Positions 19,385-44,440 are shown, counted from the first letter of the stretch. The stretch: 64,000 bases of DNA from Methanosarcina sp. MTP4 (GCF_000970045.1 NZ_CP009505.1:3682808-3746807); one strand, 5' to 3'. Made by a program: numbers and translations. Notes: generated by a model from the sequence alone, not told the origin.

Positions 19385-22369
19385 TTATTCTTCAAAAGAA
19401 TGCTGGAAGCTGTTTTGCAACTGGTATTTCCAGAGGGGGATGAGGAGCTTGTGCTGGTTTCAATCCTTGTTTTGCTGGAAGCTGTTTTGCAACTCGAAAA
19501 GTGTGTAGATATGATGAACAAAAAATGGCATTTAGAGTTTCAATCCTTGTTTTGCTGGAAGCTGTTTTGCAACTATATATACACCATTCGAAGAATTTAC
19601 GATAAAATTGTTTCAATCCTTGTTTTGCTGGAAGCTGTTTTGCAACTGCAAAACATGATGCCCCCTATGGGTTTTTTGAGTGTTTCAATCCTTGTTTTGC
19701 TGGAAGCTGTTTTGCAACATCATAACCAAGACCGACTACTAATAGGAAAGGTAGCGTTTCAATCCTTGTTTTGCTGGAAGCTGTTTTGCAACTAAACGAA
19801 TAAGAAAAACATGTATAAATGGTTTTAGACGTTTCAATCCTTGTTTTGCTGGAAGCTGTTTTGCAACTTGGTAATAGTTGCCATACTTGCACTTCTGCTT
19901 ATGGTTTCAATCCTTGTTTTGCTGGAAGCTGTTTTGCAACTGTGCAGTGAAGGGGTTACTGCACAATAAAAATAGTAAGTTTCAATCCTTGTTTTGCTGG
20001 AAGCTGTTTTGCAACCGGAATTTGTTCCGATGACTGATGATGGATATTTATTGTTTCAATCCTTGTTTTGCTGGAAGCTGTTTTGCAACCAGATGGTTGC
20101 AGGACAGTCCCAGGGTGGATGAGCAGTTTCAATCCTTGTTTTGCTGGAAGCTGTTTTGCAACGAGGAAAAGCATGAAATATTACCCTATACTTTTATTAG
20201 TTTCAATCCTTGTTTTGCTGGAAGCTGTTTTGCAACCCTTGAATGCGACAGAAAACCGCTCTGCCACCCTGGGTTTCAATCCTTGTTTTGCTGGAAGCTG
20301 TTTTGCAACTAGAAGGGCTGGAAATACAGCAGGAAGCTTTGTTAGTTTCAATCCTTGTTTTGCTGGAAGCTGTTTTGCAACAATGGACCTGATCCGCAAC
20401 CTGTAACAATACAGGTAGTTTCAATCCTTGTTTTGCTGGAAGCTGTTTTGCAACAATGGACCTGATCCGCAACCTGTAACAATACAGGTAGTTTCAATCC
20501 TTGTTTTGCTGGAAGCTGTTTTGCAACTCATAAAGGAGTTAAGAAATGAACCCCCCCAAATTAGTTTCAATCCTTGTTTTGCTGGAAGCTGTTTTGCAAC
20601 ATCATGATGATAGAAGTAGATTAAGGAAAGGTGAGAAGTGTTTCAATCCTTGTTTTGCTGGAAGCTGTTTTGCAACGACGAAAACCTCGCCACCAATTGT
20701 GTGGCTTAAGCGTTTCAATCCTTGTTTTGCTGGAAGCTGTTTTGCAACGATAAATAATTAATCTATCACAATTTTAAATTATTAGTTTCAATCCTTGTTT
20801 TGCTGGAAGCTGTTTTGCAACTGAGGCAGAACTCGTCGTAAATGAAGAAGGGTATATAGGCGTTTCAATCCTTGTTTTGCTGGAAGCTGTTTTGCAACGT
20901 CGTAGTTATGGGTGCTTTGTTCTTGGTATCCTCGGTTTCAATCCTTGTTTTGCTGGAAGCTGTTTTGCAACTTAAGGAAGCAATCTCTTGTGGCCTCTTG
21001 GTTATAATGTTTCAATCCTTGTTTTGCTGGAAGCTGTTTTGCAACTTTGGTGGCGAGCGGAGTATGTATATCTGCAAGTGGGTTTCAATCCTTGTTTTGC
21101 TGGAAGCTGTTTTGCAACTATCCTCTTCGGCGTGTTTAATGTACTCAATTCGTGTTTCAATCCTTGTTTTGCTGGAAGCTGTTTTGCAACCTTTTCCTTC
21201 TTTAATTACTGGCTATAGATTGCGTTGTTTCAATCCTTGTTTTGCTGGAAGCTGTTTTGCAACCAAGGAAGATGCACAAGAGCTTCTTAAACAAGCGACA
21301 GTTTCAATCCTTGTTTTGCTGGAAGCTGTTTTGCAACGGGAGGATTGACAGATATTACTATTATGTAATAGTTGTGTTTCAATCCTTGTTTTGCTGGAAG
21401 CTGTTTTGCAACCCACATACTTCAGCAAAGGATACGGGCATCACGGGTTTCAATCCTTGTTTTGCTGGAAGCTGTTTTGCAACAAAATGTGACTGAATCC
21501 CAACAGTCACCTGAAGAGGTGATGTTTCAATCCTTGTTTTGCTGGAAGCTGTTTTGCAACAGTTACTTTCTGGCATTGAAAACAAAAAAACAAAATGTTT
21601 CAATCCTTGTTTTGCTGGAAGCTGTTTTGCAACGGACCGAAAGACATCTTTAAAATCGCTCTTTACGTGTTTCAATCCTTGTTTTGCTGGAAGCTGTTTT
21701 GCAACTGGCGAGTCCGAAAAAGAAGCAGTCTCGGTTCTAAAAGTTTCAATCCTTGTTTTGCTGGAAGCTGTTTTGCAACTCGATTTGGCTTAGCCCAGGC
21801 AATACGAAAAGTAAAGTTTCAATCCTTGTTTTGCTGGAAGCTGTTTTGCAACAGAAGAGGCAAGGAAAAGTAATGCGAGGAATGTAAGTTTCAATCCTTG
21901 TTTTGCTGGAAGCTGTTTTGCAACAAGGCAATGGATATGGCAAAGGCAAGATGATTGTTTGTTTTGGTTTCAATCCTTGTTTTGCTGGAAGCTGTTTTGC
22001 AACGATTGGTGCCAATTTTGTTCTTTTCTGTTATATTGTTTCAATCCTTGTTTTGCTGGAAGCTGTTTTGCAACGACAGGGGCTTATCAAATAAAAAACA
22101 ATTAAAATCTAAGTTTCAATCCTTGTTTTGCTGGAAGCTGTTTTGCAACGTCCTAAATGTGGGACGGAAGACAATGAATATGTCAGTTTCAATCCTTGTT
22201 TTGCTGGAAGCTGTTTTGCAACAGGGGGAAGCCTTGAGAGGATTCAGACCAATAAGTTATGTTTCAATCCTTGTTTTGCTGGAAGCTGTTTTGCAACGGC
22301 ACTAATGAGATTGCATGATCCAACAAAAATTTGTTTCAATCCTTGTTTTGCTGGAAGCTGTTTTGCAAC
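19385..22369 (-). CRISPR. CRISPR array B1, 41 repeats, type III-A-associated family
   Basis: I count 41 repeats of 37 nt, beginning GTTTCAATCC and ending GTTTTGCAAC on the plus strand. The leftmost copy (19385-19421) is degenerate in its outer half, marking the old trailer end. The complement ends in ATTGAAAC, so transcription is leftward from the leader at 22370. Two adjacent spacers (20382-20417 and 20455-20490) are identical, indicating a repeat-spacer duplication. Several spacers contain perfect hairpins (for example 19942-19964, 21357-21372 and 21489-21522). Confidence 0.98.
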
Positions 22370-23703: not shown

Positions 23704-25197
23704 TCATGTCTGGCTAACCTCAAGTTTATTATTATCTACACTCATAAGTTTTTCTTCAAGACTTTTTTCTTCAAGGTTTTTTCTTTCAAGGCTTTTTCCT
23801 TCAAGACTTTTTCCTTCAAGACTTACTACATTTATATGACTCACCGGAAGTGGTGCCACATCTGGATTCATAGGTGTGGGCTTGGAAAAAAACTTATACA
23901 CAAGATTAAAATCTGCAATAATCATTCCTTCCACTCCTTCATTTAATTCGCATAGCTTGAAAGTTTTATCGTCTTTTTGCTTGTATCCTTTGCTTACCAG
24001 TCCTGGGAAATAGCTGTCCTTCATTCTCCCAAAAATTGCTGTTCCACCTTTTTTTGCTGTGTTTGACATGATAACATATGAACGGCTGTTTACTACATGT
24101 TCGTGAGCAATTTGATGGAACCTTCCATTGGCAGAATTGAATGAAGGAACAAATAGCATATCAATATCTAACCTTCTCTTAAAATCTGAACATAAATCAC
24201 CGAAATCTCTGCAAATCAGCACTGCAAATTTTCCAAAAAGAGTTTCGTCATAGGTGTTGATTTTATCTCCCGCCATCATACCAACGCCACACACGCTGGA
24301 ATCTTCAAATTCAGAAGGAGTTATTTTGAACTGGGGAGGAAGTAGATCCCTACTTGAATCCATAACCACACGGCATACGTTATGCCCTTCTTCATCATAA
24401 TAGCTACCTGCAATTATAATCATTTCAGGATATCGTTTTTCGATTTCTGAAAGCCAATCCTCACAAACGCACAGTTCAGGCAGACATACAATGTCAACTT
24501 TTTTAGTGGAAGCGGTATCAAGAACCTTGAAGACTTTTTCTCTGGTAATCTCTTTATCTTTGATTTCCGGTGGAAATGATTCTGTAAGGTCAAAATTTAT
24601 CTGGGCAGTGCCTATCCTGGCGACTTCTTTCTTTTCTTCAAAAATCGTATCGGATATAAATGCTTCATTTCCATAGCGTGGCTTATATGCAATTTTTACC
24701 TTTTCTCCAAATTTGCGGGATATCTGGAGCGTCAAAGAGATGTTAAGCTGAGGCGTGGCACCTGTGGTTGATACAAATACCTGGTCTGCTTCCAGAATAT
24801 TTCTGGCTACCTGCTGATAGAACCTCATAAGCCCCTTATAATCAGTGGGGTTTTCGAAGATTACTGAGACTTTAACCTTCTTTTCATCAAAATTGTAGCG
24901 CTTACAAATAATCTCCTTTGCGATTGAAGCAATATAGATCGTGTCCTGATTCTTATGCGTGGCTTGCTCAGTTCCGAAAAGGATGATTTCCTGAATGTCG
25001 AAAGATTCCCTGATTTTCCTGATGGTGGGGTCCAGAATAGGAAGGTCGAGATTTTCATAGTTTCCGGATTCCCAAAGCTTTTTGCTATCTTCATATACGT
25101 TCCCTGTAAAGGAAGCGTTTTTGCGGCTGAAAATCGATTCTTCTCCTATACCAAGATCACTATTGCCTATGTTGGCGAGCAGGACAGCTGTTTTCAT
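23704..25197 (-). CDS. CARF-nitrilase fusion, putative type III CRISPR ancillary effector
   Basis: The 497-aa protein has an N-terminal CARF domain (about 1-190; start VLLANIGNSDLG, loop FVSTTGATPQLN at about 141-152). A carbon-nitrogen hydrolase domain follows (about 193-440). The nitrilase triad is visible: Glu241 in CLPELC, Lys291 in QFKITPS, Cys329 in VLICRDFG. CARF domains bind cyclic oligoadenylate made by Cas10, so I infer a ligand-switched amidase or nitrilase. The substrate cannot be read from sequence. GAGGC precedes the ATG, 12 nt after the TIR gene, at the end of the cas10-csm operon. The C-terminal tail carries SLEGK-like pentapeptide repeats. I know of no characterised example of this fusion, though I could not search. 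Confidence 0.88.
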   Translation of the reverse strand: MKTAVLLANIGNSDLGIGEESIFSRKNASFTGNVYEDSKKLWESGNYENLDLPILDPTIRKIRESFDIQEIILFGTEQATHKNQDTIYIASIAKEIICKRYNFDEKKVKVSVIFENPTDYKGLMRFYQQVARNILEADQVFVSTTGATPQLNISLTLQISRKFGEKVKIAYKPRYGNEAFISDTIFEEKKEVARIGTAQINFDLTESFPPEIKDKEITREKVFKVLDTASTKKVDIVCLPELCVCEDWLSEIEKRYPEMIIIAGSYYDEEGHNVCRVVMDSSRDLLPPQFKITPSEFEDSSVCGVGMMAGDKINTYDETLFGKFAVLICRDFGDLCSDFKRRLDIDMLFVPSFNSANGRFHQIAHEHVVNSRSYVIMSNTAKKGGTAIFGRMKDSYFPGLVSKGYKQKDDKTFKLCELNEGVEGMIIADFNLVYKFFSKPTPMNPDVAPLPVSHINVVSLEGKSLEGKSLERKNLEEKSLEEKLMSVDNNKLEVSQT

Positions 25198-25209
25198 GTT
25201 TGATCTGCC

Positions 25210-28200: not shown

Positions 28201-28716
28201 TTTACATTTGTCTTCAAATTTAAGATTTTTTTTTAGATTTTTACAAACTTCCTCAATATCATCTATAATTTTCACAAATTCACGATCAATTGAATTATCA
28301 TTACCATCGGAAAGTGGAGTAGCGTAGTTAGGCATGATATTATTATTTGAAAGCCAGTCGAATTGGTTCCAATTACAGTGCCTTACTATAATAGGATAAA
28401 TGTGAATGTATCCCAATTCATGTCTTTTCAAAATTCTAGGAATTTCTTTATCTTGGATAAAATCAGAGCCAAGAAAGTATTGGGAAAGCAGAAGAATAGC
28501 TATGCTTGAATTGTCAATGGCCTCAAAAATCTTCTCAGAAATACATTCTCCCCCATGAATGTTATCATCATGCCAGCAATCAAGTATATGCCTATTAATT
28601 AATATTTTGAGGTTGGCAAGAAGCCTATTTTTCCATATTTCATCTTCATGACTATAACAAATAAAAACTTTGGGAAGATTCAAATACTTAAATTCTGGAT
28701 GATGACTTCCAGTCAT
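25210..28716 (-). CDS. TIR-CARF-TPR-nitrilase fusion, putative type III CRISPR ancillary effector
   Basis: The 1168-aa protein has four parts. Residues about 14-150 form a TIR domain (VFICYSHEDEIWKN, then IAILLLSQYFLGSDF) with Glu91 in DKEIPRIL at the place of the NADase Glu. About 197-420 is CARF (VLIAKIGITDLG; LFSLVGGASRQNT at 377-388). About 480-780 is helical and TPR-like (NLGETFLDENKFVVAKSNFE). About 890-1140 is a nitrilase domain with Glu939, Lys989 and Cys1027 in the same contexts as the neighbour. AGGTGA precedes the ATG, overlapping the csm5 end, so it belongs to the csm operon. I infer cyclic-oligoadenylate control of two enzymatic domains, one probably cleaving NAD. The N-terminal two-thirds is more AT-rich than the nitrilase part, suggesting assembly by fusion. 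Confidence 0.87.
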   Translation of the reverse strand: MTGSHHPEFKYLNLPKVFICYSHEDEIWKNRLLANLKILINRHILDCWHDDNIHGGECISEKIFEAIDNSSIAILLLSQYFLGSDFIQDKEIPRILKRHELGYIHIYPIIVRHCNWNQFDWLSNNNIMPNYATPLSDGNDNSIDREFVKIIDDIEEVCKNLKKNLKFEDKCKDVDNGGNLRCSSNSKFIQKGPMDPKETAVLIAKIGITDLGENGNQLNIPDKKPNDDKTVQKRKEYYKKKEKIIQTSEHHCDSKLHNFSEIPKVVENSIFEYFKSLLESNNFYDFNLLLLDPLIEYVKKNYNIKEIVIFYIEESAQQTHGKFIAHIIKKILCLKKYSFNEFEIKVEPIPNFDEEKTINRYRNEIEKIPHDIDNILFSLVGGASRQNTPGVLQSIDFFPAKTKLILKQNQENKIFVYDIYERALESTIKSTCLEGYLKCTQNNEILRCILLSKIKIIEKLITDDTRNSSKSEDKFTKSLLLNDLGKLLLEMKLTYEAKENFEEALQVLRQLTTDYPENPEYASPEYRYFNAKILFNLGETFLDENKFVVAKSNFEGSLEISKELLNIYPHKFNFQSLLLETIIKLVEIHLEIGEESSNNEECLTHALKLCDEYKKFGGANNFEDNWKIIIEYKLKALLSLSLVRAKKSEKEDVLEIYENCIASIEKLKNNTSDEKIIKLCNSIYHYLQGKKILSEAMGCNPPNFSYVEKSIESFKIAMDTSKGNEQSVLANEIFEKSNACFQIYSLFLEFRNTQRTGYEVSFNKHATIEKDNLMFSIIDRFPNELGIKETKGYLEDVVRLWSEKDPSKRKEKLAIINTSIEEIRQIKFRKIVRVLFDEAKEILMMIPTTEKNVLSISTEATEKKESYVSNYSHINSKEIKQDNMPHNMEVCRIGAVQIDFDLTESFPPEITEKQKTKTKILQTLDIAQREKVNIVCLPELCMCEECLSEIENRYSDMIVIAGSYYDKEGHNVCRVVMDSDRNILPAQFKITPSVFEDSSICGSGMVPGEKTNIYDETPFGKFAVLICRDFGNYYDSLRNKTDILFVPSYNSASDRFHQLAHSHVSDSLAYVVIANASNKGGTSIFGRMAHKHFPKLVKMGYKEENDQSFKLCELKKNEEGIIIADFNLRYKSIPTILTMDPSEEHHPVKYIKVFNLEGKPLIMGKNTL

Positions 28717-31705: not shown

Positions 31706-32224
31706 TTAATCACGCCCCCCTGCAAGTTTGTGATATGCTATTACACCTTCAAGCAGCGTCACAACCAGCTCGAACTGTTTATTATTCAAATCCGTGTTTT
31801 CCGGGAATCTTTCGTTGTCAAGCATGGAATCAAGGAGGTCTGTCAACCTTGTAAGATTAGAATTACGAGCTGTTATGTATGCAAGGTTAAGTTTTAATTT
31901 TGAAATATCGGCAGGCTTGATTCCAGACGTTTTTGTTTTCTCTATTTTTGTTTTCTCTTTAACTATCTGGAAGCCGGTAAGCAACCTGCGTAGCTGGGTG
32001 AATGTGATTTTGTCTTTTGAAAGTTTAATGCCCATTATGCAGGAAGCGTTCAGAATTTTGGAAGAATCAATATCTGAACCTGACATTAACGGCCGGATGT
32101 ACACCCTTTCTTCCTTTTCGTACCACTTGTTAATCATCCATGAATCAGAATTTTTTGCCACATTACACAGCTCGATTAATCTTCCTATTTTAAGTAAGTT
32201 TGAAAGTTCATTATCTTCACTCAT
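31706..32224 (-). CDS. csm2: Csm2 small subunit, type III-A
   Basis: Csm2 is the small helical subunit along the Csm backbone. The 172-aa protein is alpha-rich, with SKDKITFTQLRRLLTGFQIV and LNLAYITARN near the middle, matching the conserved part of the family. It is longer than many Csm2 proteins because of an N-terminal extension (about 50 residues). Its ATG overlaps the cas10 stop, as expected for this operon order. Confidence 0.9.
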   Translation of the reverse strand: MSEDNELSNLLKIGRLIELCNVAKNSDSWMINKWYEKEERVYIRPLMSGSDIDSSKILNASCIMGIKLSKDKITFTQLRRLLTGFQIVKEKTKIEKTKTSGIKPADISKLKLNLAYITARNSNLTRLTDLLDSMLDNERFPENTDLNNKQFELVVTLLEGVIAYHKLAGGRD

Positions 32225-34767
32225 TAATTCACCTTCCTTCCCCGTAGATCCAAAATATTCAGAGGCAGATCGATATCATAAATCGGATTCACTTTTTCGT
32301 CAGGAACAGAATAGAAATATTTTCTTAGTTTGTTATTTTTATCAAGGATTTTCTTCAGGTCTTTATTCCGTGAAACAAAATAATGTAACTGGATAACCCA
32401 GTTGGCTTTTTCAGGATCTTTACAATACATTTCTCTCGCATCGAGAAGCTTTCTCACCATGGTTTTGGAGGAATTTCCTTTTTCTTTCATGATGTACCAG
32501 AAAAAAGGTTCAAAATTAGAGAAGAGTTTCCTTGCGTCTTCCCATTCAAGGGAGTCTTTTATTTCTTCAAAATCTTTTATTTCTTTAAACGTCTCTAAAA
32601 TATGATCCTTCCCCACACCCCTATTAAGGAGATAGACCCTGTTTCTGCCTTCATCTTTGGAACATTCTTCTTTATTTCCGCAGACTCTGGCAATCTGGTA
32701 CAGTGGGTGTTTATTATTGAAGATAGAAAATCCGGCTGAAATCGTAACGTGCGGATTCTCAGCTACATATTTGCGGAACAAACCTTGAATGTCAAAACAG
32801 AGTTCAAAAACGTCATCCCAAGCTCCGAGTATGAAAAGATCGTCACCGCCTGCATAGACTATGCTGATATTACGTGAAGGGTCTCTACTCTTTACAAGGT
32901 TTGGCGAATTGCTCTGCCAGTTGCAGACGTCCAAGACATTTTCTTCATCAAATTCTCCGAGAAAGTTTAGATAACCTTTGAAGAAATAGTTCATCATCCT
33001 AGATAAACTGGATATCCTGGTGATTGTTCGCCGATTATCGGGAAGCCCTAATGTGAAAATCTTTCCGAGATTGTCAACATCCATCCGGACCGCACCGAGC
33101 TTCTTCGAGCCCTCCGATTTATCCGCAAGCTGCTCAAAGGTAAGGAGTTGCCTGTCAGTTTCCTTTTCATCGGATTTGGCACAGTAAATAGCAATAGGCA
33201 AAGATGAAACATGAATATCAGGAGGAATTTTTTTACTTTTCATCAGGTTAATTATTTCACCTGTATCAAAGTTGTTAACAGCATATACTGAGGAAGACTT
33301 ACTGACCGTCCCCATTGTCTCTTTATCCATAATCTTCATCGTACTGAATGGTATGGAAAAGCCTTCGCCCCTGTACTTTGTTTTTAATATGTAGAACGAA
33401 TCACCTAACCTGGCCAGTTCACTTCCAATTTTCATCTGTTCACGGCAAAGGGGACAAAATGCCACATCCTCTTCATCAACCGATTCCAGATCTTTATATG
33501 GAGTTCTCTTCCTGCATGCATCACAGGGATCGCCTTTGTCTCCAAGTTCCAGTATTTTTGAAGGATTCTTTTCAAGTGCCGACTGATATTTTTGAGCCTT
33601 CTTCAATGAGTTTTTCTGGTTAATATCCATCCATATCTTGCTGAAATTTTCAAACTTCTTCCCGCAGAAAGGAATACAGGAAAGAGCCACGTAAAGGCTG
33701 CTACTGAGTCCGTTGGCAATTAGCCAGCCTTCCGAACCCTTTCCTTCCAGGTTATTTTCTATTCCATAAAGGTCATTTTCTATTTCTTTCAATTTATTTT
33801 TTGCATCCTCAGTGTTTGGAGCAAGAATGTAAAAATTTCCGCCTCCGGAATAGAGAATGTTTGTCTTCGGAAGCCCGAGCCTTTCAACTATCTCGTGTAC
33901 GATGTCCTCGCAGAACATCTCCAGATAAAAGGACCGTCCTCTGAGAAGCCTCATAGCCCCTTTAGAGGAAATACGGTATATGAAGTCCTGGATTCCGGAA
34001 ACATCCCCACCTATTAGCAGATAATTTTCAGCCTTCAAATCGGAAATTTCATTCACAAGATCCTTTTCGAGTTCCTTTTCATGGAGCCTGTACATGCAGG
34101 AAGCAATCGCACAGGTTGTCTTGAGGTGATCAAAAAGTGAAATATCATTGTTCGCACCAGAACCGGCCGGAATAAATGCAGTGTTCTGCTCAAGGAACAT
34201 CAACAGGAGGTCTTCGTTAATCCGGTTCTCGTCGAGGTCCAGGAGTTTTCCAAAGAAATCCTTGAAAGATTTGTATATCTCTCCACATCCCTCCTCTGCC
34301 AGGGCAGGCAGGTCTTCCTTTAACCAGGGATACACAAAGGCCTTCGAGTCAAGTTTTACGGAAGGATAGTACTTTATGGGAACTTCAAACTTCTTACCCT
34401 CCTTCTCCTCCTTGATCCCCGAGATCCCCGAAAAAACAGACCTCAAAAGGTGCTTTCCAGCGGCATCTTCTCCATCACTACCGTCATTACCTGAAGAAAG
34501 CCTGGAAGCTTCCCTCACCATCCATAAAAGGTTCCTGGATTTTTGGCTCAGCCCCTCCTCCACAATTTCATCAACCGATCGGGCATGGTGATACTTCGCA
34601 AACGCAGAAAAGCCTTCGGTGTTCGCAAACGAGCTGAGAAACTCAAATCCCCTCTCAGCATGCCCTTTCGCCTCACCTTCAGGAGCCGGCACAACATGCC
34701 CTATGTCATGCAGCAGAGCTCCTATTTTCAGAAAAAGATAATCAGAATTGGTGTCACTTTTAGACAT
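32224..34767 (-). CDS. cas10: Cas10 (Csm1) with intact HD and cyclase sites
   Basis: Cas10 is the signature subunit of type III systems; on target RNA binding it cuts single-stranded DNA and makes cyclic oligoadenylate. The 847-aa protein has an HD nuclease motif at residues 20-21 (LLHDIGHV) with HAERG downstream. The first Palm domain begins at GGDVSGIQDFIY (about 253), zinc cysteines lie at about 415, 418, 438 and 441, and the second Palm domain carries YAGGDDLFILG (GGDD 640-643). All key residues are present, so DNase and signalling activities are expected. It is the first gene of the csm operon; the signal most likely acts on the two CARF proteins at its end. Confidence 0.97.
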   Translation of the reverse strand: MSKSDTNSDYLFLKIGALLHDIGHVVPAPEGEAKGHAERGFEFLSSFANTEGFSAFAKYHHARSVDEIVEEGLSQKSRNLLWMVREASRLSSGNDGSDGEDAAGKHLLRSVFSGISGIKEEKEGKKFEVPIKYYPSVKLDSKAFVYPWLKEDLPALAEEGCGEIYKSFKDFFGKLLDLDENRINEDLLLMFLEQNTAFIPAGSGANNDISLFDHLKTTCAIASCMYRLHEKELEKDLVNEISDLKAENYLLIGGDVSGIQDFIYRISSKGAMRLLRGRSFYLEMFCEDIVHEIVERLGLPKTNILYSGGGNFYILAPNTEDAKNKLKEIENDLYGIENNLEGKGSEGWLIANGLSSSLYVALSCIPFCGKKFENFSKIWMDINQKNSLKKAQKYQSALEKNPSKILELGDKGDPCDACRKRTPYKDLESVDEEDVAFCPLCREQMKIGSELARLGDSFYILKTKYRGEGFSIPFSTMKIMDKETMGTVSKSSSVYAVNNFDTGEIINLMKSKKIPPDIHVSSLPIAIYCAKSDEKETDRQLLTFEQLADKSEGSKKLGAVRMDVDNLGKIFTLGLPDNRRTITRISSLSRMMNYFFKGYLNFLGEFDEENVLDVCNWQSNSPNLVKSRDPSRNISIVYAGGDDLFILGAWDDVFELCFDIQGLFRKYVAENPHVTISAGFSIFNNKHPLYQIARVCGNKEECSKDEGRNRVYLLNRGVGKDHILETFKEIKDFEEIKDSLEWEDARKLFSNFEPFFWYIMKEKGNSSKTMVRKLLDAREMYCKDPEKANWVIQLHYFVSRNKDLKKILDKNNKLRKYFYSVPDEKVNPIYDIDLPLNILDLRGRKVN

Positions 34768-34891: not shown

Positions 34892-35878
34892 GCTTCAATC
34901 CTTGTTTTGCTGGAAGCTGTTTTGCAACTTGGCTATTACATGTTTACTCTGCCACTTTTAAAAAATAGTTTCAATCCTTGTTTTGCTGGAAGCTGTTTTG
35001 CAACAAGAGAGAGATGACTGGAACCGTTTGGTTCTAGAAGTTTCAATCCTTGTTTTGCTGGAAGCTGTTTTGCAACCTTGTCCATATAGATGACATCTTG
35101 TTATACTTTACATGTTTCAATCCTTGTTTTGCTGGAAGCTGTTTTGCAACTGTCTATTTGGACGTCTCTGATGAATCAAAATACACCGAGGTTTCAATCC
35201 TTGTTTTGCTGGAAGCTGTTTTGCAACTACTGTCTGCGGTTTTTGTGGTAGGGTATGAATATAGTTTCAATCCTTGTTTTGCTGGAAGCTGTTTTGCAAC
35301 TTGAGCTATGTGAGTAAAGCAAGATTATCAAGACGAATGGTTTCAATCCTTGTTTTGCTGGAAGCTGTTTTGCAACTCTGGTAGTTCTTAGGGACGGCAA
35401 AGAAATTTATGTTTCAATCCTTGTTTTGCTGGAAGCTGTTTTGCAACAAATCACTAAACATGGAAGAAGGGACAGAAATTTGTTTCAATCCTTGTTTTGC
35501 TGGAAGCTGTTTTGCAACTGGAGGAATTTGCTTCTTCCCCGCGTTCGGAGGAGGTTTCAATCCTTGTTTTGCTGGAAGCTGTTTTGCAACCAAATGGCTA
35601 TCAGTAGCGGGCAACCTTATTTAGTGTTTCAATCCTTGTTTTGCTGGAAGCTGTTTTGCAACTTTGGGTTCCACAAAATTCTTTTTTCAGATTAAAGAGT
35701 TTCAATCCTTGTTTTGCTGGAAGCTGTTTTGCAACCCGGAATAGAAGTTTCCGTTGATGAGGAAATAAAGTTTCAATCCTTGTTTTGCTGGAAGCTGTTT
35801 TGCAACAAATATTTTGGGTCTGGTCTTGTACGAAGGGCATAGTTTCAATCCTTGTTTTGCTGGAAGCTGTTTTGCAAC
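34892..35878 (-). CRISPR. CRISPR array B2, 14 repeats, type III-A-associated family
   Basis: Fourteen 37-nt repeats of the GTTTTGCAAC-ending family. The first (34892-34928) has a T-to-C change near its outer end, consistent with the trailer side next to the cas10 promoter. The leader lies on the right. Spacer at about 35001-35038 contains a hairpin (GGAACC/GGTTCT). Confidence 0.98.
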
Positions 35879-36190
35879 AGGGTTTCAAAAAGCCCTATTA
35901 AGCCTTTATTTTCAAAATAGAGCAATTTTTTCCGCATACCCATTTTGGCAATTTCCGCTGATCTCCCTGTTACACTATAGTATATAAAGATCAGCGGCAT
36001 ATTAATTTTTCGAAAATGAACTGGCTGATGTTGATATTATATTCTAAGAATGTACAATTATGTACATTGGGGTGAATTTCTTTAGAAACTTGGGGTAGAT
36101 CCGCGGAAATCAACCTGTTCATTTTGTGTATATTCAAGCCTATTGATGTTGAAACTGAATTTCGCACCTCGAGGGTCCGGAAATGAAAAC
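35879..36190 (-). promoter_or_regulatory. Leader of array B2
   Basis: Nearly identical to the leaders of B1 and B3 over about 300 bp, from AGGGTTTCAAAAAGCCCTAT onward. It has the TATA box and the paired CCGCTGATC (35955-35963) and GATCAGCGG (35989-35997). The third half-site near 36098 has changed to GATCCGCGG. Identity with the other leaders ends near 36190; no cas1 follows, and the flanking gene is cas6. Confidence 0.85.
35955..35997 (-). promoter_or_regulatory. Palindromic operator around leader B2 TATA box
   Basis: Same 9-bp inverted arms and 43-bp span as in leaders B1 and B3, enclosing TATATAAAG. Conservation of both arms across three leaders supports a real binding site; the binding protein is not known. 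Confidence 0.6.
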
Positions 36191-36321: not shown

Positions 36322-36993
36322 TCAGTTGTCCCGGTATACGCGGATTTTTCGGACGGTGCCTCTGCCCATTGCTGTGGATTTGCCAATTCCCATATAGTCG
36401 GGGATGCAGAAGTTTGCCATGAAACCGCCGTAGAAGGAGAGGAAGTTTACGTCTTTGTACTCGCTATTTGTTACCCTTACATCGAGGTCGCATTTGATCC
36501 GGTCGGGGACGGTGTAGCCGAGGCCTTTTGACATGGAAAGGAGGTTTCCCGTGAGGATTCTGCGGAGCATTTCTTTTTGCTCTTCCAGGGTTTTGAGCTG
36601 CATGAACTTTTCGTGGTTTTCCTGGTTCAGGGGGAGCCAGGGGGTAAGGAACTCGTAGAAGTAGATCTTGTCCGAAAGCCCGAATTCCTGGTTCTTGATC
36701 GTCATGGACCGCTGGATTATCTCGTACTCGGTTTCCCCCAGCCTGACCGAGTCAAAGTCGTCAAAGATCTCTTTCAGGACATCGATTCCTTCGTTTATGC
36801 CCAGGATGAGGGGCCTTTTCCCGACCACCTTGTACTGGATTGTAGGATAACCGTACACGAATTTGTCCGTGTTGTGGTTGTGAAGCTGGACGTATTCGTT
36901 GAATTTCGTGGCGAAAAAGCCTCGGGTGCAGAGGATGTTTTCCTTGAATTCCTTTGTGGACTTGAAGGACATTTCGAGGGTTTTGAGTTTCAT
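36322..36993 (-). CDS. cas6: Cas6 pre-crRNA endoribonuclease, type III-A island
   Basis: This second Cas6 (223 aa from the ATG at 36993) shares motifs with the I-B copy: RGFFATKFNEY, YGYPTIQYKVVGKRPLILG, TPWLPLNQENHEKF and the C-terminal IPDYMGIGKSTAMGRG. It probably processes the B-family repeats. It lies 62 nt downstream of the reverse transcriptase stop-to-start junction, on the same strand, so the two are likely co-transcribed. The frame is open to 37005 (GTG), an alternative start. Confidence 0.9.
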   Translation of the reverse strand: MKLKTLEMSFKSTKEFKENILCTRGFFATKFNEYVQLHNHNTDKFVYGYPTIQYKVVGKRPLILGINEGIDVLKEIFDDFDSVRLGETEYEIIQRSMTIKNQEFGLSDKIYFYEFLTPWLPLNQENHEKFMQLKTLEEQKEMLRRILTGNLLSMSKGLGYTVPDRIKCDLDVRVTNSEYKDVNFLSFYGGFMANFCIPDYMGIGKSTAMGRGTVRKIRVYRDN

Positions 36994-37055
36994 GTTGACC
37001 AGCACGGGATAGCCTGAAATTTTTTAAGGTGCAAAATTAAAAAAGAGTTGACCGG

Positions 37056-38372
37056 TTAAAAAGCTTTTGAAACTCCCCTGTCCTCTCCGCCTTCTCCACC
37101 TCCCCCGTCTCCTCTACATCCCCAGTCCCCTCCGTTTCTTCCTTCACCCTGCGCCGTAGAAGCTTCCAGTTCCCGTGACTTCCTTATATATTCACGGAGC
37201 TGGGCGTTGAAATAGCGCTGGATCTCCTCAAGCCCCTCGGTGTACTCCGTGTGCCGGTAATAATAGTACCAGGGGCACACAACCTTCTGGACCTCCTCAA
37301 GCACAGATTCCAGGGGCTCTGGAGCCTGTGGGTTGAATTCCGTTGCTTTTTCTATGGCTTCAATCACCCTTCTGACCGAGCCATCGGTGGGAGTTATCCG
37401 GATTTTCCCTTCAAGCCCCTCTTCGGAAGAGACCTCCAGAAAGTAATAGCCAAGGAATTCAAACCCCTTTTCAAGATTGCTTATCAGGGTCTTTTCCTTG
37501 TTTACTTCAAGGTCCAGGTCTGCAAGGACTTTCCTTATGCGAGCGAACTCCACCCAGTTCTTGCCAAGAACCACAAAATCATCCGCATACCTTACAAGCC
37601 GCTCCCCGGGCTCTCCCGCATCCCCTGCAAAAACCTCCCGCTTCCAGCACTTATCGAATTGATCGAGGTAGATGTTCACGAGCAGGGGAGAGATAACCCC
37701 TCCCTGCAGCACTCCTTTTTCGGGATAGGATACGGAGCCTCCCTTCACAACCCCTACCTTCAGCCAGGACTCGATGAGGGACAGAACATATTTGTCCCCG
37801 ATCCTTGTTTTCAGGCAGTCCATGAGCTTTTCATGGGGGATATTGTCGAAGCAGTCCTTCACGTCCCCTTTGACCACCCGGTTCATTCCGGTTTCCAGCC
37901 ACCTGTACACCTCAAGGCTTGCAAGTCTCGTGGACCTGCAGGGCCGAAAGCCAAAGGAAGAGTCCTCGAAATCCGCCTCGAAGATAGGCTCGATCACCAG
38001 CTTCACCGCCCCCTGGACAAGCCTGTCCTTCACAGTCATGATCCCGAGATGCCTTTTGCCTCCGCTGTCCTTCGGGATATCGACTCTGCGCACGTTTTCA
38101 GCCCTGTACCTCTCCGTTTTCAGCTCCTCTCTCACAGTCCGCAAAAACTCTTCCACGCCTGCCTCCTCGACCTGCCTGATAGAAAGAAAATCCACACCTG
38201 CTGCACTGCTGTCCCTGTTCAGGTTCTCCCAGGCTGCATGCAGAACCTCTTTTCTCACGAGCAGCTTTTTCAGGTGCTTGAAACGCTTTTCCTTCCTGCT
38301 GCTCGCTTTCCGGTACAGCTTCAATTGGAGATCTGCAACAGCTTGACTGCGATGACGACAATCTTCGCCCAT
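37056..38372 (-). CDS. Group-II-intron-like reverse transcriptase in CRISPR adaptation context
   Basis: The 438-aa protein has the ordered reverse transcriptase blocks: GFRPCRSTRLA, Asp170 in KGDVKDCFDNIPHEKL, VLQGGVISPLLVNIYLDQ, the catalytic YADD at 262-265, and EFLGYYF. A maturase-like X region (YRHTEYTEGLEEIQRYFN) follows, but no HNH endonuclease. The C-terminal tail is glycine and acid rich (GGDWGCRGDGGGGEGGEDRG). GGAGGG stands 6 nt before the ATG. It is upstream of cas6 and 2 kb from cas1-cas2, with array B3 and its leader between, so I infer a role in taking spacers from RNA. I saw no group II intron RNA around it, which argues against a simple mobile intron. Confidence 0.85.
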   Translation of the reverse strand: MGEDCRHRSQAVADLQLKLYRKASSRKEKRFKHLKKLLVRKEVLHAAWENLNRDSSAAGVDFLSIRQVEEAGVEEFLRTVREELKTERYRAENVRRVDIPKDSGGKRHLGIMTVKDRLVQGAVKLVIEPIFEADFEDSSFGFRPCRSTRLASLEVYRWLETGMNRVVKGDVKDCFDNIPHEKLMDCLKTRIGDKYVLSLIESWLKVGVVKGGSVSYPEKGVLQGGVISPLLVNIYLDQFDKCWKREVFAGDAGEPGERLVRYADDFVVLGKNWVEFARIRKVLADLDLEVNKEKTLISNLEKGFEFLGYYFLEVSSEEGLEGKIRITPTDGSVRRVIEAIEKATEFNPQAPEPLESVLEEVQKVVCPWYYYYRHTEYTEGLEEIQRYFNAQLREYIRKSRELEASTAQGEGRNGGDWGCRGDGGGGEGGEDRGVSKAF

Positions 38373-38515
38373 AGCACAACCCTCCAGCAGATCTTACAAA
38401 AAGTCCCCGTACGCTTCAACACCCTCTTCCGGCCTTCCGGCTGCTTCTCAACAATCCCGTCCCAAAATTTCTTAAATCTCAACTGCGACTCTCTTACATG
38501 TTTGCAGGATATCAC
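38321..38515 (-). CDS. Small basic protein overlapping the reverse transcriptase start
   Basis: A 64-aa frame starts at GTG (38515) with a strong GGAGGAGC ribosome site 5 nt upstream, and its end overlaps the reverse transcriptase gene by 52 nt in another frame. The product is rich in Lys and Arg with CKHVRESQLRFKKFW and a Cys pair in TFCKICWRVV. I do not recognise a family. The site strength and position at the head of the RT-cas6 operon suggest it is translated, perhaps as an accessory or leader protein. A 6-bp inverted repeat (ATTGGT/ACCAAT) lies just upstream near 38533-38550. Confidence 0.45.
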   Translation of the reverse strand: MISCKHVRESQLRFKKFWDGIVEKQPEGRKRVLKRTGTFCKICWRVVLWAKIVVIAVKLLQISN

Positions 38516-38788
38516 ATCGCTCCTCCTTTTTTAATTGGTTAAACACCAATCATCTCCTGCTCCTGATGTCCCAGGTGACGAAGAATTCGATAGCATACGC
38601 AACGATTCGATAACCTATCTTATGCTTCGGAAGCACAGCTTTTTAGTCTGAAAAAACAGAGTTAATTTTTTAAGATTATACAGCCGGACAAAAGAGAGTT
38701 TTTGAGAAAAAAATCAGACTTGCCGCATGTTGGAGCTGCTTTGCGGCATGAGTCGTTAGTAGTATACTATGGTGAGGACATTTTTTTC

Positions 38789-39915
38789 GTATTGATCCTT
38801 GTTTTGCTGGAAGCTGTTTTGCAACGTGTTGAGAGAGGTCTAAAAAATGTCACTTAATACGGTTTCAATCCTTGTTTTGCTGGAAGCTGTTTTGCAACAT
38901 TGGCACCCAATGGGAAGGGTGCACAAGGAGCTAGAAGTTTCAATCCTTGTTTTGCTGGAAGCTGTTTTGCAACTAAAAAAGCAGAGGATTCTTTCCTTGT
39001 GAGAGTTTGTTTCAATCCTTGTTTTGCTGGAAGCTGTTTTGCAACTGGAGTGGAGTATGGCTCAGGATATTAGATTAAAGTTTCAATCCTTGTTTTGCTG
39101 GAAGCTGTTTTGCAACAGAACTTTGAAGTCTTACAGCGCAGGGGATCAGGCGTTTCAATCCTTGTTTTGCTGGAAGCTGTTTTGCAACATTAGAACCGGT
39201 AGAGATAGACGCTATCGGTTACATAGTTTCAATCCTTGTTTTGCTGGAAGCTGTTTTGCAACAACAAAAAAGAAAGAGAAAAAGAGGATGATAAATTGGT
39301 TTCAATCCTTGTTTTGCTGGAAGCTGTTTTGCAACAGAGAAAAAGATTTTTGATGCTTCCAAAGTTTTACAGTTTCAATCCTTGTTTTGCTGGAAGCTGT
39401 TTTGCAACAGAAAAAGCATGGGGATATGCGGAGGTACAATATCGTTTCAATCCTTGTTTTGCTGGAAGCTGTTTTGCAACTTTGGACAACGATGTAATCA
39501 CAATAATCACTAAAGTTTCAATCCTTGTTTTGCTGGAAGCTGTTTTGCAACTTTTTATTCGTGCCTGGTGTTAAAGAATGGGCAGAAGTTTCAATCCTTG
39601 TTTTGCTGGAAGCTGTTTTGCAACAGTGAATATGACTTCACGCCAAAAGCTCTAAAAAAGTTTCAATCCTTGTTTTGCTGGAAGCTGTTTTGCAACTGCA
39701 GGATAAAGTCGTCGATGCCATGAAAGACATCAGTTTCAATCCTTGTTTTGCTGGAAGCTGTTTTGCAACGACGAGAAAATTGTCGGATGGATTGCCGAAT
39801 ATAGTTTCAATCCTTGTTTTGCTGGAAGCTGTTTTGCAACCTCGATTATAATGGGAATGATTATAAAGACCTGTTTCAGTTTCAATCCTTGTTTTGCTGG
39901 AAGCTGTTTTGCAAC
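38789..39915 (-). CRISPR. CRISPR array B3, 16 repeats, next to cas1-cas2
   Basis: Sixteen 37-nt repeats of the B family; the leftmost (38789-38825) is degenerate at its outer end, marking the trailer. The leader on the right leads directly into cas1. Hairpin-bearing spacers occur at 38899-38911, 39194-39220 and 39626-39641. Confidence 0.98.
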
Positions 39916-40440
39916 AGGGTTTCAAAAAGCCCTATTAAGCCTTTGTTTTCAAAATAGAGCAATTTTTTCCGCATACCCATTTTGGCAATTTCCGCTGATC
40001 TCCCTGTTACACTATAGTATATAAGGATCAGCGGCATATTAATTTTTCGAAAAAGAACTGACTGATGTTGATATTATATTTTAACAATGTACAATTGTGT
40101 ACGTTGGGGTGAATTTCTTTAGGAACTTGGGGTAGATCAGCGGAAATCAACCTGTTCATTTTGTGTACATTCAAGCCTATTGATGTTGAAACTGAATTTC
40201 GCACCTTGAGGTTCCGGAAACTGGAAATTGAGAGCATTTTTTAAAGAGTTCTCCGGATGACACCCTGACGGCTGCATTACCCTGGAATATTTTTTGAATT
40301 CATAGGCAATTTAGATTATTCCATGAAGGAAAATCGCATTCGGAAGCCGTTTGTTCGATTCCGCATCGAATTGATCGAAAGACGCTATATTTGCACGGGG
40401 AGGCATAAGGAAAAGTAAAGAACGGATTTTCTAAAAGGAG
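39916..40440 (-). promoter_or_regulatory. Leader of array B3 and cas1 upstream region
   Basis: The first 320 bp match the leaders of B1 and B2, with paired CCGCTGATC (39992-40000) and GATCAGCGG (40026-40034) around a TATA box and a third site at about 40136-40144. The remaining 200 bp match the region before the decayed cas1 at 23.3 kb. No gene lies here. The array promoter points left and cas1 is read to the right. Confidence 0.85.
39992..40034 (-). promoter_or_regulatory. Palindromic operator around leader B3 TATA box
   Basis: Same inverted 9-bp arms and spacing as in the B1 and B2 leaders; here the TATA box reads CCTTATATA on the minus strand. It is the copy closest to the CARF-winged-helix gene at 41799. 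Confidence 0.6.
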
Positions 40441-40450
40441 GACTACCAGG

Positions 40451-41458
40451 ATGCGAGTTGTGATTGATGAATACGGGACTTATGTGCACAAGAAGCGAAA
40501 CCGCTTTGTCACAATGAACAATAAGGACAAGGCGGTTAAATGGGAATTTTCGGCAGACAAGGTTACCCAGATTCTGGTTTACAGGGGAGCTGCCATCACT
40601 GCGGATGCAATTGACCTTGCGGTCAAAAAGGGCATAGACATCATTTATCTGGACAAGTTCGGAAAGCCTTTTGCAAGGACATATTCGTGCAAATTCGAGA
40701 ATTCTGCTGCGGTCCACCGCTGCCAGGTGCGGGCGTATGACAGCGAAAAAGGAGCCCGGCTGATGAGGGGGATGATCGAGGCAAAGATCAGGAACCAGTC
40801 ATATCTGCTAAAAAGCCTTGCAAGGAACAGGGAAGACAGGGAACTGGAAGAGACAGCCGAACATATCCTTTCCCTCTGTGCAGGGCTTCCCGAAGGCGGA
40901 GACATCGACATGTCCAGAAACAGGCTTTTCGGGATCGAAGGGGAAGCTTCCAGGGAATATTTCGGAGCCCTTGGGACCGTGCTTCCCGAAAAAGCATATT
41001 CAGGGAAAAGGACAAAGCAGCCCCCGGAAGACCTTTTCAATGCCCTGCTCAGCTACGGATACGGGATCCTCTACACCGAAGTGGAAAAAGCCTGCGTCCT
41101 TGCCGGGCTTGACCCTTACATGGGTTTCCTGCATACCGACAGGCCGGGAAAGCCCTCCATGGTTCTGGACCTGATGGAAGAGTTCAGGCAGCCCGTGGTT
41201 GACAGGGCAGCAATCTCCCTTGTCTCGAAAAAGGCAGTAAAGCCCGACGAACTCAAAGCGGTTGAAAACGGCTTTTACCTGGACCGGTCGGGGAGGCATA
41301 AGATGGTCGAAGCCATGAGCTCAAGGCTTTCGAAAATAATCACTTACAGGAAAGACCGGCACTCCTTTTCCAGCCTGGTACTCCGGCAGGCGAGGGAAGT
41401 CGTGAAGTTCATCTGCGGAGAGGAAGAGGCTTACTCTCCTTTCGTGTACGGGGGATGA
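40451..41458 (+). CDS. cas1: Cas1 integrase, type III-A island
   Basis: The 335-aa Cas1 is complete, from MRVVIDEYGTYVHKK to the catalytic region: GIEGEASREYFGAL (Glu), GFLHTDRPGKPSMVLDLMEE (His and Asp). AGGAGG stands about 11 nt before the ATG. It follows the leader of array B3 and overlaps cas2. It is only a distant relative of the I-B Cas1 at 7.0 kb, so the two systems have separate adaptation machines. The nearby reverse transcriptase is a separate protein, not fused as in some bacterial systems. Confidence 0.96.
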   Translation: MRVVIDEYGTYVHKKRNRFVTMNNKDKAVKWEFSADKVTQILVYRGAAITADAIDLAVKKGIDIIYLDKFGKPFARTYSCKFENSAAVHRCQVRAYDSEKGARLMRGMIEAKIRNQSYLLKSLARNREDRELEETAEHILSLCAGLPEGGDIDMSRNRLFGIEGEASREYFGALGTVLPEKAYSGKRTKQPPEDLFNALLSYGYGILYTEVEKACVLAGLDPYMGFLHTDRPGKPSMVLDLMEEFRQPVVDRAAISLVSKKAVKPDELKAVENGFYLDRSGRHKMVEAMSSRLSKIITYRKDRHSFSSLVLRQAREVVKFICGEEEAYSPFVYGG

Positions 41459-41763
41459 AAGTGCTTCTCTGGCTCATCTACGATATCACGGACAATTCCC
41501 TTCGCTACCGGGTCTGTGAGACCTGCAAGGACTTTGGCCTCTTCAGGGTCCAGAAAAGCGTGTTCTTCGGGGAACTGGACGCCGACAAAACAGCCTCGAT
41601 TCTGGATAAAATGGAAGATATCTTGAACGATGAAAACAAAACAGAGCATGATTCGGTACTCATCCTTCCGGTCTGCCGGGCATGCCTTTCAAAAATGCTC
41701 GCCGCCGGGAGAATGTTTGATGCCGGCCTGTACACGGACCGGGAATGTGTAATTCTCGGCTGA
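41455..41763 (+). CDS. cas2: Cas2, type III-A island
   Basis: The 102-aa Cas2 starts VLLWLIYDITDN and contains FRVQKSVFFGELD, typical of the family. Its ATG overlaps the cas1 TGA. Unlike the I-B Cas2 it has no N-terminal extension. C-terminal Cys residues (VCRACLSK) are unusual but not at known functional positions. Confidence 0.95.
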   Translation: MKVLLWLIYDITDNSLRYRVCETCKDFGLFRVQKSVFFGELDADKTASILDKMEDILNDENKTEHDSVLILPVCRACLSKMLAAGRMFDAGLYTDRECVILG

Positions 41764-41798
41764 AATCAAGGGGAAATCAGGGAATATGGAGGATAAGC

Positions 41799-42566
41799 AT
41801 GTCAGTATTGATTGCTACGGTTGGTGGAACTGAAAGTGTTGTAAAGCTCGGTTTTCGAATGATGGAAAACGTGGAAAAAGTAATACTCGTCCCCGGAAAG
41901 CCGTTCGAACAGGTAATGGAAAAGTCTGAAATCAAGCAAGGAAAAACCCGTTCCAACCCCGTCCGAAAAGCCTATGAACTGAAAAAGTCAATCGAGGACT
42001 TCGGAGCGGAGGTCGAGATTCACGAAGTAAACCCCCTCAATTTCAAGGAATGCCTGATAAGGATCATAGAACTGATACAGGAACAGCCCGAAGGAACTGA
42101 TGTCGCAGTAAACGTAACCGGCGGGACAAAGCTCCTCTCCCTTGCTGCAATGAACGCCGCCTGCATGTGCTACTGCAAAGCTTTCTACGTCCAGGAAAAA
42201 GGTTCCGGAGACATAAAAGTTGACCTGCCGTCCCCCAATTCCGGCTACTTTTACGACATAGGAGACCAGGCGAAGAAAATACTATCGTACCTTCTGGACG
42301 AGCACAAAAAGTTGAAAAAACCCGTAGAAGAATGCAGTGATTACGAGTTGAAGAAATTCATAAATCGAGAGATAGCCGGTGGACTGAAAGTGACATCACA
42401 GACTATCACCAATAAACTCCAGATGCTGGAAGCAGACGGGCTTCTCATGAGTAAAAAAGGTGCCCTTAAAAACTCGTCAGGATTAGGGAAAAGCAGCGTG
42501 AAGATCTGGTGGCTTACTGATGAAGGTAGAATATACGCTACCTACTTCAGCAAAAAGGGTTCTTGA
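41799..42566 (+). CDS. CARF-winged-helix regulator downstream of cas1-cas2
   Basis: From the ATG at 41799 (GGAGG upstream) the protein has 255 residues; the frame extends to 41745. The N-terminal CARF domain starts SVLIATVGGTESVVKLG and has the loop VAVNVTGGTKLLSLAAMNA. The C-terminal winged helix includes VTSQTITNKLQMLEADGLL. It is Csa3-like but quite different from the copy at 14582. Position after cas1-cas2 suggests control of adaptation or of the B leaders, possibly in response to cyclic oligoadenylate. Confidence 0.85.
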   Translation: MSVLIATVGGTESVVKLGFRMMENVEKVILVPGKPFEQVMEKSEIKQGKTRSNPVRKAYELKKSIEDFGAEVEIHEVNPLNFKECLIRIIELIQEQPEGTDVAVNVTGGTKLLSLAAMNAACMCYCKAFYVQEKGSGDIKVDLPSPNSGYFYDIGDQAKKILSYLLDEHKKLKKPVEECSDYELKKFINREIAGGLKVTSQTITNKLQMLEADGLLMSKKGALKNSSGLGKSSVKIWWLTDEGRIYATYFSKKGS

Positions 42567-43675: not shown

Positions 43676-44011
43676 TCACTCAGTTTGTTTGAGGATTTCG
43701 GTTTGATTCATAGGATTTTTAGATTTTTCTTGTTTTTTCACAAAATCTGCTTTACACAAAGAAGCCAAAAGTTCTTTACCTTCTTCAGTTTGTAAAATAG
43801 CATTGAGCATTATTTCGGGGAGTTTAGTTTCACTTTGTTGAATTTCTCTACTAACCCTCTCATCATACTTTGCAATAAACTCAGCTATTGCTGTATTTAC
43901 AAAATCTGAAACACTACTAAACTCTCCAGAATCTACGAACTCATCTATTCGATTTTTTAAATAAGGGCTTATAGTTGAGCTAATCTTTTCTTTTTTATAT
44001 TGAATTGCCAT
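43676..44011 (-). CDS. Ribbon-helix-helix protein, copy 1
   Basis: The 111-aa protein begins KEKISSTISPYLKNRIDEFV followed by FSSVSDFVNTAIAEFIAKYDE, a clear ribbon-helix-helix (CopG/ParD-like) DNA-binding pattern. The helical C-terminal part has no recognised domain. A near-identical copy lies just upstream (44128-44400), so the pair arose by tandem duplication. No toxin-like partner is visible next to it. Likely a small repressor of an element or defence locus; target unknown. Confidence 0.7.
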   Translation of the reverse strand: MAIQYKKEKISSTISPYLKNRIDEFVDSGEFSSVSDFVNTAIAEFIAKYDERVSREIQQSETKLPEIMLNAILQTEEGKELLASLCKADFVKKQEKSKNPMNQTEILKQTE

Positions 44012-44440
44012 AAGATTACACCAAAATCCTGTAGTTAGATTAACATTTCATAAAAATCATGAAAAAAGGCAGAATAAAAGGAATAATAATTACTTTAATA
44101 TCACTTTTTTAGATTTTTCTTGCTTTTTCACAAATCTGCTTTACACAAAGAAGCCAAAAGTTCTCTACCTTCTCCAGTTTGTAAAATAGCATTGAGCATT
44201 ATTTCAGGGAGTTTTGTTTCACTTTGTTGAATTTCTCTACTAACCCTCTCATCATACTTCGCAATAAACTCAGCTATTGCTGTATTTACAAAATCTGAAA
44301 CACTACTAAACTCTCCAGAATCTACGAACTCATCTATTCGATTTTTTAAATAAGGGCTTATAGTTGAGCTAATCTTTTCTTTTTTATATTGAATTGTCAT
44401 AAGATTACACCAAAATCCTGTATTAGATTAACATTTCCAA
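43718..44440. repeat. Tandem segmental duplication of the RHH gene
   Basis: Two units of about 330 bp (about 43718-44054 and 44107-44440) are nearly identical, including the coding part and upstream TAAGATTACACCAAAATCCT. A spacer of about 50 bp separates them. Confidence 0.85.
44128..44400 (-). CDS. Ribbon-helix-helix protein, copy 2, frameshifted C-terminus
   Basis: The first 87 residues are almost identical to copy 1. One A is missing in the run at about 44130 (CACAAATC instead of CACAAAATC), which shifts the frame and ends the protein at 90 aa. The DNA-binding part is intact, so it may still function. High identity implies a recent duplication. Confidence 0.65.
   Translation of the reverse strand: MTIQYKKEKISSTISPYLKNRIDEFVDSGEFSSVSDFVNTAIAEFIAKYDERVSREIQQSETKLPEIMLNAILQTGEGRELLASLCKADL

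What the first reader, a model, noticed from the sequence alone, without database searches (positions are those of the whole stretch)
36322..41763. Stand-alone reverse transcriptase beside cas6, array, cas1 and cas2
An RT with intact YADD shares an operon with cas6 and is separated from cas1-cas2 only by array B3 and its leader. RT-Cas1 fusions allow spacer capture from RNA in some bacterial type III systems. Here the RT is unfused, archaeal, and shows no intron RNA around it, which suggests domestication for adaptation.
Basis: partly seen in the sequence, partly recalled or inferred. Interest (0 to 1): 0.85.

Follow-up and report, generated by a model that had tools for sequence, protein, structure and literature searches.

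The report
Archaeal CRISPR-linked stand-alone reverse transcriptase
A methane-making archaeon carries a gene for copying RNA into DNA, descended from a mobile intron, inside its CRISPR immune locus, where it probably helps record invaders' RNA; this type of gene was first described in 2017, and the new part here is evidence about what it travels with and which way its recorded fragments point.

Summary
Window 37056-38372(-) is a stand-alone 438-aa group II intron-type RT with YADD, 50 nt upstream of cas6b. It is separated from the divergent cas1-cas2-CARF genes only by array B3 and its leader. No intron RNA is detectable, although the same search finds it beside four related RTs. The kind is already published: RT-CRISPR clade 1 (Toro 2017) or branch 11 (Silas 2017), an independent Methanosarcinaceae recruitment.

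New evidence supports a role in adaptation:
- All 7 family genomes with the cognate cas1 carry the RT. Of 13 with only the cognate cas6, 3 keep it (Fisher p=0.003), but phylogeny leaves just 3-4 independent contrasts.
- RT divergence tracks Cas1 (r=0.92) better than Cas6 (r=0.73); dN/dS is about 0.06-0.15.
- The C-terminal D segment of intron RTs is lost.
- 361 spacers in 15 RT-linked arrays look almost uniformly antisense to coding sequence (about 0.93-1.03, against 0.66 in I-B arrays).

RT-less type III arrays also lean antisense (about 0.7, intervals partly overlapping), so this does not prove RNA capture. In two relatives a group II intron has inserted inside the RT's catalytic motif. RNA acquisition itself remains untested.

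The parts
37056..38372 (-). Stand-alone group II intron-type reverse transcriptase, 438 aa, YADD at residues 262-265; RT and thumb/X present, no D or En domain, disordered low-complexity tail from about residue 412
   Evidence: TIGR04416 334.5 bits; RVT_1; motif and alignment; AlphaFold model pLDDT 86.7, best PDB match GsI-IIC RT 6ar1 E 6e-25
36322..37005 (-). cas6b, 50 nt downstream of the RT, same strand
   Evidence: Pfam Cas6b N and C domains; PADLOC Cas6 1.9e-77
38789..39915 (-). CRISPR array B3 (16 repeats of 37 nt, 15 spacers), transcribed on - strand; degenerate leader-distal repeat at 38789
   Evidence: orientation from repeat 3' end ATTGAAAC and the leader at the right end
39916..40177 (-). 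Leader of array B3, 96% identical to the B2 leader
   Evidence: direct repeat D4
40451..41458 (+). cas1 of the type III-linked adaptation module
   Evidence: Pfam Cas_Cas1 1.8e-80; TIGR00287
41455..41763 (+). cas2
   Evidence: Pfam CRISPR_Cas2; TIGR01573
41745..42566 (+). CARF-domain protein (Csa3-like regulator or sensor), conserved after cas2 in relatives
34892..35878 (-). CRISPR array B2, same repeat as B3, 13 spacers
35879..36140 (-). Leader of array B2
   Evidence: direct repeat D4
19457..22369 (-). CRISPR array B1, same repeat, 39 spacers
32224..34767 (-). cas10/csm1 (type III-A effector)
   Evidence: TIGR02578 592 bits
28718..32224 (-). csm2, csm3, csm4, csm5
   Evidence: Csm2 and Csm5 models, RAMP; csm3 and csm4 assigned by position and by homology in relatives

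Best explanation
The gene is a domesticated, group II intron-derived reverse transcriptase of the RT-CRISPR clade 1/branch 11 kind. It works in trans with the neighbouring Cas1-Cas2 integrase of a type III-A system, so that RNA fragments (mainly invader mRNA) can be made into cDNA or RNA/cDNA prespacers and inserted at the leader ends of arrays B1-B3. The resulting crRNAs, cut by the adjacent Cas6, are antisense to transcripts and can arm the Csm complex. Shown here: gene content, intact active-site motif, absence of intron RNA, loss of the intron-type C-terminus, purifying selection, co-occurrence and co-divergence with this Cas1, and antisense polarity of the linked spacers. Inferred: contact with Cas1-Cas2, RNA as substrate, and cDNA synthesis during acquisition.
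For: All 7 Methanosarcinaceae genomes with the cognate Cas1 (identity >=50%) also carry the RT. Of 13 genomes with only the cognate Cas6, 3 keep a full-length RT, 8 have truncated remnants next to cas6 and 2 have none (Fisher p=0.003). RT distances correlate with Cas1 (r=0.92) and Cas2 (0.88) more than with Cas6 (0.73); pairwise dN/dS is 0.06-0.15. No intron RNA lies beside any uninterrupted clade member scanned, with positive controls. The C-terminal D segment, ending .LGL. in intron RTs, is missing in 8/8 family members but kept in the order-level outlier G165. In 15 RT-linked arrays, 361 spacers have a purine-rich non-crRNA strand (0.588, 15/15 arrays above 0.5). Codon scoring gives an antisense share of 1.03 raw (CI 0.95-1.10) and 0.93 composition-corrected (0.80-1.09), against 0.66 for I-B arrays. 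The one protospacer found lies in sense orientation in a 150-aa ORF of a congener (33/36).
Against: RT is intact in G076, G104 and G098, which lack the cognate Cas1. On a Cas6 tree the RT-Cas1 association rests on 3-4 independent pairs only. RT-less type III arrays also lean antisense (0.69-0.70, CI 0.46-0.97), and in Marinomonas the RT-dependent orientation bias is only moderate (PMC5576922), so the polarity could come from selection. The window and G081 have near-identical Cas1-Cas2 (dS 0.35) but diverged RT and Cas6 (dS 1.3-1.6), so the modules have been exchanged.
Confidence: 0.66

Rival explanations
1. The RT serves adaptation but on DNA: it fills in, tails or primes prespacer ends, as shown for CRISPR-associated RTs that prime on RNA and DNA, and the antisense spacer polarity is produced afterwards by type III selection.
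For: RT-less type III arrays lean antisense too. Published CRISPR-associated RTs prime on DNA (PMC10415136, abstract). No RNA-virus protospacer was found here.
Against: Polarity in RT-linked arrays is higher than in RT-less type III arrays on the raw measure (1.03 against 0.68-0.74), and the newest spacers are as polarised as the oldest (0.79 against 0.82), which gives no sign of gradual purging.
Confidence: 0.2
2. The RT works with Cas6 or crRNA rather than with Cas1, for example in crRNA maturation or copying.
For: RT and cas6 are adjacent in 6 genomes (G000, G098, G081, G085, G076, G104). RT stays intact in G076 and G104 without Cas1, under purifying selection (dN/dS 0.15).
Against: Cas6 persists without an intact RT in 10 genomes. 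Cas6 is about 9 kb from the RT in G110 and G080 while Cas1 stays close to it. Co-divergence with Cas6 is weaker.
Confidence: 0.08
3. The RT is a passenger: the remnant of a group II intron that landed in the locus and has not yet decayed.
For: Origin among group II intron RTs. Truncated copies occur in 8 genomes.
Against: The RT is intact in 10 genomes of several genera and one other family, and interrupted by an intron in 2 more; the family members form one clade (100%) with dN/dS 0.06-0.15 and active-site residues kept. No intron RNA of its own remains in any scanned member, so mobility cannot explain the persistence.
Confidence: 0.06

Closest known systems
RT-CRISPR clade 1 (Toro et al. 2017, PMC5541045; lineage 4 in PMC6013744) = branch 11 (Silas et al. 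2017, PMC5513706)
   Same: Methanosarcinaceae; stand-alone group II-like RT beside cas6 in a type III locus; no intron RNA; array adjacent; cas1 present and separate (Toro).
   Different: Silas describes the locus as lacking cas1; here cas1-cas2-CARF lie 2.1 kb away across array B3, on the other strand. The published reference sequences themselves could not be put in the tree, and this locus may be one of Toro's five.
[quoted passage not shown] Cas6-RT-Cas1 structure 7kft)
   Same: The same three activities (Cas6, RT, Cas1) are brought together in a type III system; the RT domain is homologous (7kft E 1e-28).
   Different: Three separate genes on two strands; RT of separate descent according to PMC5513706 and PMC6013744; orientation of spacers far more uniform than the MMB-1 acquisition data.
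Mobile group II intron RT/maturase (GsI-IIC, LtrA; TIGR04416)
   Same: Fold and RT motifs (6ar1 E 6e-25, 32% identity).
   Different: No intron RNA, no D or En segment, host locus conserved instead of scattered.
G2L4 domesticated group II-like RT (PMC12337344)
   Same: An intron RT recruited for a cellular task.
   Different: Only 19% identity; CRISPR linkage instead of repair context.

Membership tests
RT-CRISPR clade 1 / branch 11 | RT groups with Methanosarcinaceae CRISPR-linked RTs as one clade | tested here: met
   10 family RTs form one clade (SH-aLRT 100) with the window RT; among them L088, on a contig of the same length as the Methanosarcina sp. Ant1 record of L004. Published clade-1 accessions themselves were not available.
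RT-CRISPR clade 1 / branch 11 | RT separate from Cas1, next to cas6 | tested here: met
RT-CRISPR clade 1 / branch 11 | Type III effector genes in the locus | tested here: met
   cas10/csm1 592 bits, csm2, csm5
RT-CRISPR clade 1 / branch 11 | No recognisable group II intron RNA | tested here: met
   with positive controls
RT-CRISPR clade 1 / branch 11 | Descent near class F group II introns | tested here: inconclusive
   Class F reference introns were not in the tree; deep branches are weakly supported
RT-CRISPR clade 1 / branch 11 | No cas1 in the locus (Silas wording; not part of Toro's definition) | tested here: not met
   cas1 at 40451-41458. Toro's account includes a separate cas1, so this is a difference between published descriptions, not a defining feature of the clade.
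Mobile group II intron | Intron RNA domains flanking the ORF | tested here: not met
Mobile group II intron | C-terminal D (DNA-binding) segment | tested here: not met
   tail comparison
RT-Cas1 fusion | RT and Cas1 in one polypeptide | tested here: not met
   separate ORFs on opposite strands
RNA-capturing CRISPR adaptation module | RT-dependent acquisition of spacers from RNA | not testable with these tools
   needs an acquisition assay; the strand polarity of existing spacers is compatible

The most novel reading that the evidence does not exclude
In these archaea the unfused RT makes acquisition itself directional: RNA is captured and its cDNA is integrated in a fixed orientation, so that practically every new spacer yields a crRNA antisense to the source transcript. 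That would be a high-fidelity orientation mechanism of the kind reported missing in the Marinomonas RT-Cas1 system.
Probability: 0.22. Interest if true: 0.82.

Novelty: new member of a known kind. Interest (0 to 1): 0.5.

Why it matters
It is a natural split version of the Cas6-RT-Cas1 machine in a lineage with genetic tools, so RNA-derived immunity in archaea can be tested directly. How type III systems get usefully oriented spacers is open (PMC5576922 notes that almost half of RT-Cas1-acquired spacers in Marinomonas are useless for interference). The near-complete antisense polarity seen here across 15 RT-linked arrays offers a contrast that can be tested.

Tried and rejected
Intron RNA around the RT: none. 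Protospacers: no match for arrays B1, B3 or the L103 array in phages; only Runella CRISPR-like hits in plasmids; five spacer cores gave no exact match in IMG/VR. One 33/36 match lies in a congener's DUF1269-like gene, sense strand, and is absent from the own genome at up to 3 mismatches outside the array. The idea that strand bias is unique to RT-linked arrays was weakened: RT-less type III arrays lean the same way, the array-level difference disappears after correction for coding purine content (p=0.17), and end-trimming narrows it. RT-Cas1 co-occurrence looked strong by Fisher test but phylogeny leaves few independent contrasts. The first spacer run miscut the G076 repeats; corrected. Promoter and terminator scans gave no more hits than shuffles and use a bacterial consensus.

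Full report
What is there. The window lies in a 4.21-Mb archaeal chromosome. Around 36-42 kb the gene order on the minus strand is B3 leader, array B3, RT, cas6, B2 leader, array B2, csm1-csm5. On the plus strand, divergent from the B3 leader, are cas1, cas2 and a CARF protein. A second, complete type I-B system (Cas8b, Cas7b, Cas5b, Cas3b) lies at 6-14 kb and has its own repeat. The RT is a group II RT/maturase by TIGR04416 (334.5 bits). It has YADD at residues 262-265 and a confident model (pLDDT 86.7; disordered after about residue 412) that matches the GsI-IIC group II intron RT best (6ar1, E 6e-25, 32% identity).

No intron. Rfam finds no group II intron domain in the window, none around the RT at E<=10, and none beside nine of the relatives' RTs (L085, L087-L092, L094, L186). 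The same search finds D1-D4 and D5/6 around the RT of the own genome's second RT gene (L002) and around L006, L007 and L008, which are among the nearest RTs outside the clade. The negative is therefore meaningful. Intron RTs continue about 57-70 residues past the conserved W..Y of the X domain, and many end in a D segment with an LGL-like end. The 8 family members compared lack that segment, while the order-level relative G165 keeps it.

Already known kind. Toro et al. 2017 (PMC5541045) defined RT-CRISPR clade 1: five Methanosarcinaceae RTs, separate from Cas1, without intron structure, in type III loci. Silas et al. 2017 (PMC5513706) describe the same as branch 11, an RT next to cas6, recruited independently, with no cas1 in the locus. 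Toro 2018 (PMC6013744) proposes a class F origin. In the tree the window RT falls in a fully supported clade of ten family RTs, with G165 as the likely outgroup. This is the same kind, and possibly one of the published loci.

What travels with what. In 112 family genomes the cognate Cas1 (>=50% identity) occurs in 7: G000, G081, G110, G097, G080, G085 and G071. All 7 have the RT. In G081, and very probably G097, it is interrupted by an intron. The cognate Cas6 without that Cas1 occurs in 13 genomes. In these the RT is full-length in 3 (G098, G076, G104), truncated to fragments in 8 and not found in 2. Fisher p=0.003, counting the intron-interrupted copies as present. The caveat is that on a Cas6 tree only 3-4 independent contrasts remain; all that differ go the same way, but they are too few for significance. 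RT distances track Cas1 (r=0.92) and Cas2 (0.88) better than Cas6 (0.73), and dN/dS of 0.06-0.15 shows the gene is maintained. RT is also intact in three genomes that lack the cognate Cas1, so its use may outlive that partner or involve another integrase. A recent exchange of the cas1-cas2 module between the window's lineage and G081 is suggested by dS 0.35 for Cas1-Cas2 against 1.3-1.6 for RT-Cas6.

Spacer orientation. The crRNA strand is fixed by the ATTGAAAC end of the repeat and by the leader. In 15 RT-linked arrays from 10 genomes (361 spacers) the strand opposite the crRNA is purine-rich, like the sense strand of coding genes here (0.588 against 0.55-0.57 for CDS; 15/15 arrays above 0.5). 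I-B arrays average 0.526. A codon model, calibrated on sense fragments of coding genes, gives an antisense share of 1.03 (CI 0.95-1.10) raw and 0.93 (0.80-1.09) composition-corrected. I-B arrays give 0.66, and RT-less type III arrays of other archaea 0.68-0.74 raw and 0.69-0.70 corrected, with wide intervals. The newest third of spacers is as polarised as the oldest (0.79 against 0.82, p=0.62). The only located protospacer, for a B3 spacer, lies on the sense strand of a congener's 150-aa ORF with 33 of 36 bases matching. The bias is thus real and strong, but since type III interference itself needs antisense crRNAs, selection can produce it. In Marinomonas the RT-dependent acquisition bias is moderate (PMC5576922). 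The data do not separate directional capture from selection.

Introns inside the RT. In G081 the RT gene is split right after YADD by a group II intron with its own RT (D1-D4 at L103:10214-10331, D5 at 8529-8604, both minus strand). In G097 the RT breaks at the same codon, followed by the same kind of intron start (GTGYGCCACGAAAGCGCACT), and Rfam finds the same family, RF01999, cut by the contig end. Homing of Methanosarcina group II introns into other introns' sequences is known (PMC4424553); here the target is a CRISPR RT. Whether splicing restores the RT is not known.

Mechanism. The most likely scheme is that the RT is recruited to Cas1-Cas2, converts RNA into cDNA-containing prespacers, and lets type III arrays be stocked from transcripts, with Cas6 maturing the crRNAs. 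Gene content, conservation, co-occurrence and polarity are shown; partner contact, RNA substrate and directionality are inferred. Confidence is 0.66 overall. Rivals are a DNA-only role in adaptation (0.2), a Cas6-side role (0.08) and a passenger (0.06).

Noticed in passing
L103:8529-10396 (G081) and L110:1-119 (G097): A group II intron (RF01999) sits immediately after the YADD codons of the CRISPR-associated RT in two related species; in G081 it carries its own RT.
   Followed up: partly
window 23704-28716: Two ancillary type III effectors behind csm5: a 1168-aa protein with an N-terminal TIR domain and a C-terminal nitrilase-like part, and a 497-aa CARF-nitrilase; relatives occur in G098 (L206) and in part in G074 (L174).
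   Followed up: partly
window 40451-42566 against L103: cas1-cas2 differ from those of G081 at dS about 0.35 while RT and cas6 differ at dS 1.3-1.6, which suggests exchange of the adaptation module.
   Followed up: partly
L187 (G165, another family of the order): An RT that keeps the intron-type C-terminus sits between an array and cas4-like, cas2, cas1, cas6 and CARF genes: a possible early stage of the recruitment.
   Followed up: partly
window 20382-20490: Array B1 holds the same spacer twice in a row (20382-20417 and 20455-20490).
   Followed up: no
window 43676-44011 and 44128-44400: Two neighbouring near-identical ORFs (94% over 300 nt) that look like small DNA-binding proteins.
   Followed up: no
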